NCBI RefSeq assembly: GCF_002077135.1
Contig: NZ_LDOS01000002.1
Location: forward strand, 558,001-622,000
From: Metallibacterium scheffleri
GTDB taxonomy: Bacteria > Pseudomonadota > Gammaproteobacteria > Xanthomonadales > Rhodanobacteraceae
Length of the DNA: 64,000 bases
Reading direction: 5' to 3'
Position numbers and translations under genes: made by a program. How positions within the stretch are numbered: position 1 is the first letter of the stretch; each line of letters opens with the position of its first letter. Under the pieces are notes generated by a model. The model did not search any database and was not told where the DNA came from. It was given only the letters and a program-made list of their open reading frames with translations. Positions 11,415 through 17,953 of this stretch are shown here, piece by piece.

Positions 11415-11610
11415 CATTGGCGTGGCGCTGGCGTGCAGAACAGAAAGTGTTCCTGGAGCGGAATGAAGAAGTAGCGTGTGAGTCGGGACTTGGTGGTCAG
11501 GGGGCGACTCGAGGATCAGCCCCGATTGCTCACTGACGGCGAGCACTGTGACCGAAGCCAGCTTCCGGCCCGAAGGAGACGTTGCAACTGCATGGGCCGA
11601 GTGACACAGT

Positions 11611-11673
11611 GCGACCCCTTCCGGACAGTCGCTGAGCGAATTTCATGGGAAGAGAGCAGACATTGCCGTGAGG
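11611..11673 (+). repeat. uninterrupted copy of the dispersed element hit by the IS
   Basis: This 63-bp block shares roughly 80% identity with the reverse complement of 17897-17953 and then with bases next to 16369. It contains CCCCTTCCGGACA, GAATTTCA and CATTGCCGTGAGG. In the other copy the insertion sequence splits CATTGCC from GTGAGG exactly, so this copy shows the empty target. Confidence 0.75.
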
Positions 11674-11865
11674 GTTCGGCGCTTGGCGCTGCTGGCGCTT
11701 GAGCTGCAGTCGGTTGGCTTGGCTCCAGCCTCGCAGTGCTTTGTCCACGGCTTTCATCCCTGACCGATTATTAAATCGGCAGCAACAGCATGAAAGCTCA
11801 AATCGCCGACTAACCAACGCGTGGGGTTAATCGGAAGTCTCCTGAGGAGATGTTAGGATCGCGCA

Positions 11866-15710: not shown

Positions 15711-15982
15711 TCCTCACGGCCTTGGGCCCGTTGCAAGGATCGGCCACACTGGCGTCAAGGCGGTCTGAGTGGCACAGTGCGACCCAAAGCCGTCATTCTT
15801 CATCCTTGGCCGAACCAGCATTTTGACGTCAAACACCCAAGGTGGGAGCCGAGTGCGTGAATTGCGCTTGCTCGGATCTGTGCAGGGGGTACGGAGCAAT
15901 CCGTATCCCTACTGCGAACGGCTGGCTGAGGATCAGCGCTAATCAGGACTTTCTATCGAAGCATAACTAGGACGGAAACATC
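15711..15982. other. spacer with words shared with the island's left edge
   Basis: No gene is seen in these 272 bp. GTGGCACAGTGCGACCC near 15769 and GAGGATCAGCGCTAATC near 15932 recur in slightly altered form at 11601-11617 and 11513-11527. This suggests that diverged copies of one element border accessory genes here. Confidence 0.4.
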
Positions 15983-16306
15983 ATGGCAAAGTACTTGTAT
16001 GAAGTTAGCCTCGAACGGGGAAGAGACAACCCGGCATTTTCAGCGTTCTTGAAAAATGCTATGAATCTAAATGGTAAGGCCCCGGATTTTGGTGGTATTA
16101 GTCGTGTATGTTTAGTCAGCCATCACATGGATATCGACACCATCAGATTGCTGTTCGAGGAAGGGCTAAAGAAAAGCAAGAGTGATTTGTCTGTCGAAGA
16201 AATTACAAAAGACTCCCTGGAGTCATTGACAGGCCACCATAGAATTTACACGGATACGATAAAAAATCTATTTTTACCGTACGACTCATACCCCAATATC
16301 AAATGA
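15983..16306 (+). CDS. small low-GC orphan protein, gene-cassette-like
   Basis: 107-residue soluble protein I do not recognise. It is acidic to neutral with no signal peptide or membrane segment; it starts MAKYLYEVSLERGRDN and has a charged helical middle (LLFEEGLKKSKSDLSVEEI). Its codons are AT-rich compared with neighbouring genes, pointing to recent transfer. The stop codon falls directly before a sequence resembling the 3' half of an integron attC site, the usual layout of a promoterless gene cassette. The ATG at 15983 is preceded by AGGACGGAAAC. Confidence 0.65.
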   Translation: MAKYLYEVSLERGRDNPAFSAFLKNAMNLNGKAPDFGGISRVCLVSHHMDIDTIRLLFEEGLKKSKSDLSVEEITKDSLESLTGHHRIYTDTIKNLFLPYDSYPNIK

Positions 16307-16344
16307 CGCGCGCATTGCGAGCCGCTTAAGTTCAGGCGTTAGGT
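16302..16344 (+). other. attC-like 3' half site
   Basis: GCCGCTTAAGTTCAGGCG followed by GTTAGGT (16338-16344) matches the L'-R' end of integron attC sites (GCTTAAC, spacer, GCGTTRRRY) and directly follows the stop codon of a low-GC gene. The complementary 5' half (RYYYAAC plus L'') was not found, so the site is truncated or diverged. A GTCTAAC word (16358-16364) follows 13 bp later. Confidence 0.45.
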
Positions 16345-16372
16345 AGCCGCGCGAAGAGTCTAACCTCACCAT

Positions 16373-16385
16373 AAGAGACTTCCCG
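16373..16385 (+). repeat. IS1111 subterminal inverted repeat, transposase-3' end
   Basis: AAGAGACTTCCCG, an exact inverted match to 17877-17889. It lies 3 bp inside the inferred IS end. Confidence 0.85.
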
Positions 16386-16717
16386 TCAACGCCGCGCGCT
16401 TGAGGTTCTTGCCTTGAGCTTTCGGGCCATGGCTGGTCATCGTGTTGTCCTCTTTGCTGCGTCGTGCGTGTCAGTGCTGCGTGGTGATGCAACGAATGTC
16501 AGACTGCATTTCCATAAACGGTCTTGTTGCGCCGCTGATGCTGGCGCGGACCAGGGTATAAACCGCACCCGGAGACCTCGTTCGTCTTTCGGTATCGTCG
16601 GTGTTCGGGGATCAGCCGAAACACGGGGTGACGTCCGGCAGGTTAGTCAGGTTCTCTCCGGGTCGGTCTGACCGTTGTCGACCACTTCGCGCTGACGTGA
16701 AAGGATGTGCGTTCGTG
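16386..16717 (-). ncRNA. candidate bridge RNA / seekRNA region of the IS
   Basis: IS1111-group elements are known to carry a guide RNA in the long non-coding end downstream of the transposase, where two short loops pair with target and donor DNA. This 332-bp stretch occupies that place. It contains TGAGGTT (about 16401) and AGGTTAG (16640-16646), 7-base words that also occur in the target flank immediately beside the insertion point. Seven-base matches can arise by chance, and I have not folded the RNA. Confidence 0.4.
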
Positions 16718-17815
16718 TCATGCCATGCCGGCGATCCTCACCGCGCGCTTGCCGGCCGGGCGCTGCACCATCGGGTGCTTCAGCCACGCCTCGGCGTCGT
16801 AGGCTTCCTCGCGCGCCAGCATCGCCCACAGTTGCCGCGCGTGTTTGTTCGCAATCGCCACCAGCAGCTTGCCGAACGGCATCCGACACGCCAGTTGGCG
16901 GATCCAGATCTGCTCGGGCGTGGCCCGATCCTGTGCAGTCACCTTGGCGCGCTGCAGGCTGCTGCGCGCGCCCTGGATCAGCAGCGTGCGCAGGTAGGCA
17001 TCGCCGCGGCAACTGATCGTGCCCAGGCGGGTGTGCCCGCCGCTGGAGTGCTGGGTCGGCACCAGGCCGAGCCATGCGGCCAGTTGCCGGCCGTTCTTGA
17101 ACTCCTTGGCCGAGCCGACGCTCGCCACCATCGCATCGGCGGTGAGCGGGCCAATGCCGATCAGCGCGCGCAGCCGCACGCAGCGCTCATCCGCCTTGGC
17201 GTGCGCTTCGATGCGCGCATCGCACGCGGCGATGCGGTCGCGCACCTGCGCCCAGTGCGCGCTGAGATCGCGCAGCAGTTCCTTCAGCTCCGCAGGCAAC
17301 GATGCCGCTGCGTCGAGATCCGCCAAGGCGATGCGCAACGCCCGGTCACCCTGCGCCATCACGATGCCAAACTCGGCCAGCAGACCGCGCAGGCGGTTGC
17401 TGATCTCCAGCCCTTCGGTCTTGTAGCCCTCGCGCACGCGATGCCATGCCAGCCGCGCCTGCTGCTCGACCGACTTGACCGGCACAAAGCGCATGTTGCC
17501 CTGGCGTGCCGCCGTGGCAATCGCCTCGGCGTCGTTGCGGTCGTTCTTCAGTGTGCGGCTCTTGCGGAACGGCGTCACGAACTGCGCCGCCATCAAGCGC
17601 GGCTGCAGACCGACCTCCAAACAGCGCCGCGCCCAATGGTGCGCGCCACTGCATGCCTCCATCGCCACCACGGTGCCGGCCGGCACCTGCGCCAGCCACA
17701 GCGCAAACGCTTCACGCCCGAGATCCTGCCGCCGCTGCACGTGTCCGGCGCCATCCACCGCACATACGGAAAACAGGTTCTTCGCCAAATCCACGCCCAT
17801 GGTTATAGTGCTCAT
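16718..17815 (-). CDS. IS110-family (IS1111 group) transposase
   Basis: 365-residue recombinase. The N-terminal RuvC-like DEDD domain has GVDLAKN (Asp9), AMEACSGAHHWAR (Glu53) and KNDRNDAEAIA (90-100). The C-terminal Tnp domain has LIGIGPLTADAMVASVG and LAAWLGLVPTQHSSGG, with the candidate active serine at 257-258, followed by ISCRGDAYLRTLLIQGARS. The GLVPxQHSSGG...RGDxYLRxLLIxGAR pattern is the IS1111 signature. The frame is intact and full length, so the element may still be active. Family enzymes move DNA with an RNA guide and leave no target duplication. Confidence 0.95.
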   Translation of the reverse strand: MSTITMGVDLAKNLFSVCAVDGAGHVQRRQDLGREAFALWLAQVPAGTVVAMEACSGAHHWARRCLEVGLQPRLMAAQFVTPFRKSRTLKNDRNDAEAIATAARQGNMRFVPVKSVEQQARLAWHRVREGYKTEGLEISNRLRGLLAEFGIVMAQGDRALRIALADLDAAASLPAELKELLRDLSAHWAQVRDRIAACDARIEAHAKADERCVRLRALIGIGPLTADAMVASVGSAKEFKNGRQLAAWLGLVPTQHSSGGHTRLGTISCRGDAYLRTLLIQGARSSLQRAKVTAQDRATPEQIWIRQLACRMPFGKLLVAIANKHARQLWAMLAREEAYDAEAWLKHPMVQRPAGKRAVRIAGMA

Positions 17816-17876
17816 CGAGACTTCCCCTTCTGCTGACGGTTGTAAAAACCATCATGGCCCTCGAGGCCGTTGGAAG

Positions 17877-17889
17877 CGGGAAGTCTCTT
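17877..17889 (+). repeat. IS1111 subterminal inverted repeat, transposase-5' end
   Basis: CGGGAAGTCTCTT, the exact complement of 16373-16385. It lies 7 bp inside the inferred IS end. Confidence 0.85.
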
Positions 17890-17896
17890 TTTACTC

Positions 17897-17953
17897 GGCA
17901 ATGGCAGCTTTCTCCCTGTGAAATTCTCTCAGCGTGTGTCCGGAAGGGGCCGA
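17897..17953 (-). repeat. dispersed element, part separated by the IS
   Basis: On the minus strand this reads CCCCTTCCGGACACACGC and on to GCCATTGCC. It aligns with 11611-11667 at roughly 80% identity. Homology stops exactly at the inferred IS end and resumes on the other side of the IS with GTGAGG (16364-16369). Confidence 0.7.

What the first reader, a model, noticed from the sequence alone, without database searches (positions are those of the whole stretch)
16370..17896. IS1111-type element with an exactly reconstructable empty site and a probable guide RNA
Seen in sequence: 13-bp subterminal inverted repeats, an intact IS1111-type transposase, and flanks that join as CATTGCC plus GTGAGG. 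That join is exactly the sequence of a related element at 11661-11673 in the same window, so the target is a dispersed repeat and the insertion left no duplication. Known for the family: an RNA guide lies in the long non-coding end downstream of the transposase. Inference: the 330-bp end here encodes that guide, and the words TGAGGTT and AGGTTAG inside it echo the target flank.
Basis: partly seen in the sequence, partly recalled or inferred. Interest (0 to 1): 0.75.

Follow-up and report, generated by a model that had tools for sequence, protein, structure and literature searches.

The report
RNA-guided jumping gene, retargeted
This is a small jumping gene of a known RNA-guided kind; its relatives insert into integron recombination sites, but this one's guide RNA has changed and matches the new, mostly different places where its copies now sit.

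Summary
A 1527-bp IS1111-type element lies at 16370-17896 (minus strand), with 13-bp subterminal repeats, an intact transposase and a 348-nt downstream non-coding end. Eleven copies were found in the genome, nine full length, all with the same ends. Uninterrupted sites in two relatives confirm insertion without duplication or loss. The guide RNA is real: 30 homologues share one fold (17 of 42 pairs with compensatory changes).

The interpretation needs correcting. The target is not a dispersed repeat but about 13 bp, roughly GNC|GGCAGGTTAG. Close relatives sit in integron attC-type sites (TTGAAY|GNNNNGTTAG). Both halves of the guide have changed here and match this element's own sites: 52 match points over nine sites against at most 28 for 22 other guide pairs. 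One reader 'echo' (AGGTTAG) is the guide; the other (TGAGGTT) lies outside the RNA.

A second loop of the RNA copies the element's own end. Where the right end differs, the RNA usually differs identically: 32 of 35 distinct elements match here and 18 of 18 in another IS1111 group. This is comparative evidence that IS1111 RNAs read donor as well as target, predicted before but left open. Nothing was tested at the bench.

The parts
16370..17896 (-). IS1111-type insertion sequence, 1527 bp (left end at 17896, right end at 16370)
   Evidence: ends; nine full-length copies with identical ends; empty site of copy L004 in relatives
17877..17896 (-). left end: 7-nt extension GAGTAAA + 13-bp subterminal repeat AAGAGACTTCCCG
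16370..16385 (-). right end: 13-bp subterminal repeat CGGGAAGTCTCTT + 3-nt extension ATG
16718..17815 (-). transposase, 365 aa, DEDD/RuvC domain + Transposase_20; contains GLVPTQHSSG
   Evidence: motif GL-P----S(T)G of IS1111 transposases from PMC11187229
16500..16673 (-). conserved guide RNA core (bridge/seekRNA), 174 nt
   Evidence: 30 homologues, 42 pairs, 17 with changes on both sides, 98.9% of cells paired
16637..16646 (-). right-flank (top-strand) target guide CTAACCTGCC, 5' side of target loop
   Evidence: exact complement of GGCAGGTTAG at copy L004
16584..16589 (-). left-flank (bottom-strand) target guide AAAGAC, 3' side of target loop
   Evidence: the same place reads CCGACA in relative L042, which equals L042's own left flank
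16554..16562 (-). putative left-end donor guide TTTATACCC (7 of 9 complementary to GAGTAAAAA); its first three bases are drawn paired in the neighbouring helix
   Evidence: position by structure; the left end hardly varies in this group, so there is no covariation test
16511..16517 (-). right-end donor guide TTATGGA, identical to the circle junction TTATG|GA; the last two bases run into the neighbouring helix
16360..16369 (-). right flank of target, GTGAGGTTAG in IS orientation
17897..17903 (-). left flank of target, CATTGCC in IS orientation
11612..11693 (+). related uninterrupted sequence, 80% to the joined flanks

Best explanation
The element is an autonomous IS1111-family insertion sequence of the attC-targeting lineage. 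Transposase and a bridge-type RNA would be expressed from the circular form, whose abutted ends make a -35/-10-like pair (TTGACG, 17 nt, TAAAAA; read by eye, inferred). The RNA has two internal loops. [quoted passage not shown] In the second, the 3' side (TTATG, running on as GA) carries the sequence of the element's own end junction and the 5' side is largely complementary to its left end. The transposase would bring target and circle together on this RNA and exchange strands at C|G without duplication. Compared with relatives bound to integron attC sites, both target half-guides have changed, and the element has spread mostly to non-attC sites that match the new guide. Shown here by sequence: ends, no duplication, RNA fold, guide-target and guide-end correspondence. 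Inferred: expression, circle, RNA-protein complex, strand exchange.
For: Same ends in 9 of 9 full copies. Empty site in two same-genus genomes, and an intact frame with a Trypsin_2 domain across the junction when copy L006 is left out in silico. RNA fold: 98.9% of cells paired, 17 of 42 pairs with changes on both sides, 0 of 500 shuffles reach it. Guide swap: the window guide scores 52 over the nine own sites outside the two classical attC sites; the best of 22 other guide pairs scores 28. Of three perfect CGGCAGG[TC]TAG sites inferred to have existed in the genome, two are occupied (L003, L004) and one is free. L042's left guide CCGACA equals its left flank. Donor guide: 32 of 35 distinct elements identical over 5 nt, permutation 0 of 20000; the nine carriers of changed, matching ends that are on the transposase tree do not group together. 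In a second IS1111 group 18 of 18 match, 72 of 72 positions against a permuted mean of 47.4. The permutations do not allow for relatedness.
Against: The window copy itself matches its guide only in part: 8 of 10 on the right (G and AGGTTAG), 2 of 4 on the left. On the two classical attC sites the window guide scores 9, inside the range of the other guides (7-12). Spacing between insertion point and G[TC]TAG varies (position 5, 6 or 7), so a 1-nt bulge must be assumed in 4 of 11 sites. In attC-bound relatives the bases after CTAAC often do not match the target spacer (G305: guide CTAACTGGAT, five copies, five different spacers), so only part of that guide is constrained there. Left-guide covariation is 119 of 144 positions (9 of 20000 permutations as high) but weak without the window element and L042 (1351 of 20000). 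Three of 35 elements mismatch at the donor guide (L027, L044, L160); the end of L033 was read one base shifted by a rule of mine, and in L027 and L050 the last G could belong to the flank. Seven enterobacterial IS1111 loci of the L067 type showed no donor word longer than 5 nt with the ends I parsed. No expression data.
Confidence: 0.82

Rival explanations
1. The RNA reads only the target (short seekRNA model); the element's ends are recognised by the protein through the subterminal repeats, and the end-like word in the RNA has another cause such as RNA processing or sequence copying between the end and the RNA gene.
For: PMC11187229 reports that an 82-nt seekRNA with the target matches supports ISEc11 transposition and leaves the role of the long RNA open. 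Three of 35 elements mismatch; no donor word was seen in seven L067-type loci.
Against: Six different right-end words other than the common one, in nine elements that do not group on the tree, each repeated in the RNA loop (two of the nine, L045 and L065, read by eye), plus 18 of 18 in another IS1111 group with different sequence, where the word spans both ends.
Confidence: 0.15
2. One reading: the target is a dispersed repeat, and the IS is directed to that repeat.
For: Left flank is homologous to 11612-11668 (82%) and the joined flanks align across the junction (80%).
Against: Only one such partner was found in the genome; the flanks of the other ten copies, compared by eye, show the 13-bp pattern and no common longer sequence.
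Confidence: 0.03
3. The guide has not been functionally re-aimed: a burst of transposition produced off-target insertions at any C|GNNNNGTTAG, and the non-attC sites reflect loose specificity.
For: G[TC]TAG is the only longer right-flank word common to all 11 sites; spacing varies; two of 11 copies are in classical attC sites and a third (L009) in an attC-like inverted repeat. On the attC sites the window guide fits no better than the others.
Against: The nine sites outside the two classical attC sites match the changed guide nearly twice as well as any of 22 other guide pairs of the family; two of three perfect 11-mers are occupied; the five examined copies of the relative G305 all have the attC-type left flank CCTTGAAC.
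Confidence: 0.2

Closest known systems
IS1111-attC group (ISKpn4, ISPst6, ISPa25 in PMC11187229; ISPa21 in PMC11616780; Tetu & Holmes 2008 and Post & Hall 2009 themselves not seen, known from citing passages and recall)
   Same: Transposase type, subterminal repeats, downstream non-coding end, insertion beside GTTAG of attC-type sites in close relatives and in two own copies
   Different: The window copy and most own copies are outside classical attC; both halves of the target guide differ from those of attC-bound relatives
seekRNA of IS1111 elements (PMC11187229; results and discussion read)
   Same: RNA from the downstream end, top-strand match 5' of bottom-strand match, target halves on both strands
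   Different: Here a second loop matching the element's own ends is conserved and co-varies with them; that paper found the short RNA sufficient and left the long one open
IS110 bridge RNA (IS621; PMC11208160, passages read)
   Same: Two internal loops, one for target and one for donor, each with a left and a right guide
   Different: RNA lies at the right end, guides are in reversed order. That paper shows three IS1111 members with predicted donor matches by manual inspection and says many IS1111 have them in a multi-loop; here the donor loop is a simple internal loop. In the passages I saw, covariation analysis is described for IS110 elements, not for IS1111

Membership tests
IS1111 family | Subterminal inverted repeats of 7-17 bp (range from PMC11208160) with a 7-nt left extension (PMC11187229) and 3-nt right extension (recalled) | tested here: met
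   13 bp, GAGTAAA and ATG
IS1111 family | DEDD transposase with C-terminal Transposase_20 domain and GL-P----S(T)G motif | tested here: met
   (both Pfam models over cut-off); GLVPTQHSSG in the translation. Length 365 aa is slightly above the 330-350 stated in PMC11187229
IS1111 family | Long non-coding region downstream of the transposase encoding a structured RNA | tested here: met
   348 nt; fold conserved in 30 homologues. Expression not testable here
IS1111 family | Insertion without target duplication | tested here: met
   empty site in G009 and G012 for copy L004; L006 frame
IS1111 family | Circular intermediate | not testable with these tools
   needs PCR or reads
IS1111-attC group | Inserted at a fixed point of integron attC sites | tested here: inconclusive
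   45 of 46 parsed rows of relatives have a left flank ending T[TC]G[AG]N[CT] (some rows are the same element from two collections). Own copies: 2 of 11 classical attC, 1 attC-like (L009), 8 judged not attC, of which L006 and L008 were flagged by the crude folding test and discounted. Lineage yes, window insertion no
Bridge RNA (bispecific) | Target loop whose two sides match the two target halves | tested here: met
   partial match at the window copy itself
Bridge RNA (bispecific) | Donor loop whose two sides match the element's ends | tested here: met
   right-end side by covariation; left-end side by complementarity only in this group, by covariation in group 2 (121 of 144, 1 of 20000 permutations as high, but with a best-window score that favours a match)

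The most novel reading that the evidence does not exclude
IS1111 RNAs are full bispecific bridge RNAs whose donor guide co-evolves with the element's ends throughout the family, and in this genome natural change of both target half-guides released an integron-bound element into a genome-wide burst, with tolerance of a one-base bulge in the guide-target pairing.
Probability: 0.5. Interest if true: 0.68.

Novelty: new variant of a known kind. Interest (0 to 1): 0.55.

Why it matters
RNA-guided recombinases of the IS110/IS1111 families are being developed as genome-writing tools. Whether IS1111 RNAs read the donor as well as the target is treated differently in two of the 2024 papers that described these RNAs. 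Matching changes of end and RNA in two IS1111 groups make that question directly testable. The natural change of target guide, with 11 mapped insertions, gives a ready-made specificity data set, including apparent bulge tolerance, and suggests how an element confined to integrons can escape them.

Tried and rejected
Rfam gave no family for the RNA. The integron integrase model found nothing above cut-off in the genome (its control rings in all 14 genomes, below cut-off). My first attC finders were no use: a pattern search over fetched stretches and the window returned nothing, and a box-complement test did not separate known attC sites from others. The folding test of 34 relatives attC-like (L046 and L059 skipped), so it misses many; in the own genome it flags the two classical sites, L009, and also L006 and L008. 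I discount L006 (its box is TAGC at 120 nt, inside a protease gene) and L008 (CAAC at 86 nt, in the abutting relic).

Regular expressions: my first one for group 2 picked a wrong place in L075, L099 and L101 (16 of 19); I corrected it by requiring the distance to the right end seen in the alignment (18 of 18 distinct, one duplicate removed). Dropped before counts: L059, L166, L167 (no standard donor loop or no flank), L085 and L102 (ends not parsed), L053 in the left-guide and guide-swap counts (guide not parsed), and five of 41 RNA rows whose right end was not parsed (L030; L045 and L065, which match by eye; L160 and one L044 element, which end in TTACT against TTACG). The match counts the 5-mer anywhere in the parsed end. 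Of 92 loci with a transposase match, parsed 52. Of 33 distinct RNA sequences I aligned 30, leaving out L048 and L059 (extra stretch in the loop) and L172 (near copy of L163). Of loci L066-L104, one search was given 32 of 39, and only the ATGGAC-repeat group was followed. The genome scan kept the best 80 of 448 loci, and one search scored at most five candidates a genome.

NCR-only matches L013, L015, L016 were first taken for mobile RNA-only elements; they are truncated right ends without transposase, and no target guide was found in them. The joined L006 site had no match in the 12 other same-genus genomes. No close copy in plasmids (one match of about 49 bases). Structure prediction was not run. 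Statements on what is in print rest on searches; no preprints are held.

Full report
What is there. The element at 16370-17896 lies on the minus strand: left end at 17896, transposase 16718-17815, 348-nt non-coding end, right end at 16370. Pfam finds the two domains of IS110/IS1111 transposases above cut-off. The 13-bp subterminal repeats and the long end downstream of the gene are those described for IS1111 (PMC11187229, results section read; discussion).

Copies and ends. Nine full-length copies and two copies split by other DNA were found in the genome. Of the eight other full-length copies seven are identical to the window copy and one differs at two bases, so the spread is recent. In all 11 the left flank ends in C and the right flank begins with G. 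The joined flanks of copy L004, upstream of surE (named from its translation by eye), match uninterrupted sequence in two same-genus genomes without any gap at the junction (85% over 339 nt in G009, 91% over 337 nt in G012; a third, G006, aligns loosely at 68%). Leaving copy L006 out in silico gives an open frame in which a Trypsin_2 domain runs across the junction. Insertion therefore neither adds nor removes bases. For the window copy the only uninterrupted relative found is 11612-11693 (80%); 60 other genomes gave one partial match that does not reach the junction.

Target. The right flanks of the 11 copies read G, then 3-5 further bases, then GTTAG (9) or GCTAG (2): in seven copies the word starts at base 6 after the insertion point, in two at base 5, in two at base 7. 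Two copies sit in sequences with the form of integron attC sites (CTAACGC...GTCCGCCTTGAAC|GAAATGTTAG and CCTAACGC...GCTTGGAC|GAATGGTTAG). Copy L009 sits in an attC-like inverted repeat. I judge the other eight not to be attC; the crude folding test also flags L006 and L008, which I discount for reasons given under Tried and rejected. In close relatives (67-81% identical transposases, in Rhodanobacteraceae, Lysobacteraceae and others) the left flank ends in TTGAAY or a variant of it (T[TC]G[AG]N[CT]) in 45 of 46 parsed rows, the exception being L042. The lineage is thus attC-bound by its flanks, and this element has largely left attC. It is not bound to a dispersed repeat.

RNA. Thirty distinct homologues of 16500-16673 share one fold with 42 pairs; 17 pairs show changes on both sides, 98.9% of cells are paired, and no shuffle (0 of 500) and no slid version comes near. 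The single window sequence folds with a z-score of -2.23. One loop (columns 26-36 and 87-97) holds CTAAC plus variable bases on its 5' side, and a word ending just before a GAAC/GAAT-like stretch on its 3' side. CTAACCTGCC is the exact complement of the right flank GGCAGGTTAG of copy L004. The 3' word AAAGAC resembles the own left flanks (GNC in 8 of 11), while attC-bound relatives mostly have TGAAC, TGAAT or TGGAT there and L042 has CCGACA, its own left flank. Scored over the nine sites outside the two classical attC sites, the window guide reaches 52 match points, the next of 23 distinct guide pairs 28; on the two attC sites it scores 9, inside the 7-12 of the others. In the genome as held, perfect CGGCAGG[TC]TAG now occurs only inside the 11 IS copies and at one free place; L003 and L004 occupy two more. 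In relatives the bases after CTAAC are less constrained: five examined copies in G305 share one guide word and have five different spacers. The order of the two target matches is that reported for IS1111 seekRNAs (PMC11187229).

Donor side. The second loop (columns 117-123 and 158-164) holds TTATG, running on as GA into the next helix; TTATGGA is the junction of the abutted ends (TTATG|GAG). In relatives whose right end is TTACG the RNA has TTACG. Among 35 distinct elements 32 are identical over the five bases, including ends TTATG, CTAAG and CTAGG; three are not (L027, L044, L160); 0 of 20000 permutations do as well. A wider parse, which also takes in the relic L013, adds CCAAG (L026) and a second CTAAG (L111): 35 of 36 parsed RNAs match, and by eye CTACG (L045) and TTAGG (L065) match too. 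On a maximum-likelihood tree of 36 transposases the nine carriers of changed, matching ends do not group together; the nearest case to a pair is L026, whose sister is the mismatching L027. Only 13 of 33 inner branches are well supported, and L065 is long. In a second IS1111 group with another repeat (ATGGAC...), the four bases made of the right-end extension plus the first left-end base recur in the RNA in 18 of 18 distinct elements, 72 of 72 positions, permuted mean 47.4, 0 of 20000; the left-end side scores 121 of 144 with 1 of 20000 permutations as high, by a best-window score that favours a match. None of these permutations allows for relatedness. A third type (enterobacterial, L067-like, seven loci) showed no such word with the ends I parsed.

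Comparison with print. Durrant et al. (PMC11208160; passages read) predicted bridge RNAs in 93% of IS1111 elements and show predicted donor matches for three IS1111 members by inspection; in the passages I saw, covariation analysis is described for IS110 elements. Siddiquee et al. (PMC11187229) found the short target-matching RNA sufficient and the role of the long one open. I saw no covariation test of donor guides in IS1111 in the listings of the library searches made; preprints and most subscription papers are not held. Natural re-aiming of an IS1111 guide is known (ISEc11/ISXne4), so the re-aiming here is a further case, with more own insertions to compare, not a new principle.

Limits. 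All of this is sequence comparison. Expression, the circle, the complex and the strand exchange are inferred from the family. Bulge tolerance rests on four sites. The naming of attC sites rests on form, since no integron integrase above cut-off was found in this genome. That the host belongs to Rhodanobacteraceae is inferred: a genome marked as of the same family (G261) has the same element at the same coordinates as the named Dyella locus L025.

Noticed in passing
window 15844-15918 (+): Weak group II intron match (33.6 bits, gathering 40, E 0.00092) just upstream of a small cassette-like ORF (15983-16306), followed by an attC-like half site ending CAGGCGTTAGGT near 16343; looks like integron-cassette remains beside the IS.
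   Followed up: partly
L008 with L016 (C2:1744959-1746762): A full copy has inserted exactly at the right end of an older truncated relative, so a right end directly abuts a left end as in a circle junction.
   Followed up: partly
L013, L015, L016: Truncated right ends of related elements without transposase; no target guide was found in them. L013 keeps the same TTATG donor word and end.
   Followed up: yes
L015, L016, L048 (second element), L059, L167: The donor loop of the RNA is interrupted by an extra hairpin-like stretch of about 22-24 nt (clear; for L167 inferred from the fragment).
   Followed up: no
L056 / L110 (G009, same genus): Truncated near relative (85% over residues 1-211) with the same left end as the window IS and a non-attC left flank.
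   Followed up: no
L003, C4:33157-34701: One copy lies on a 46-kb contig about 1.2 kb from a fragmentary integrase-model match (C4:31715-31927, below cut-off).
   Followed up: no
window 11573-11632 and about 15765-15785; L023, L024: Short words of the type GTGACACAGTGCGACCCC recur in the window (by eye) and at two other places of the genome.
   Followed up: no
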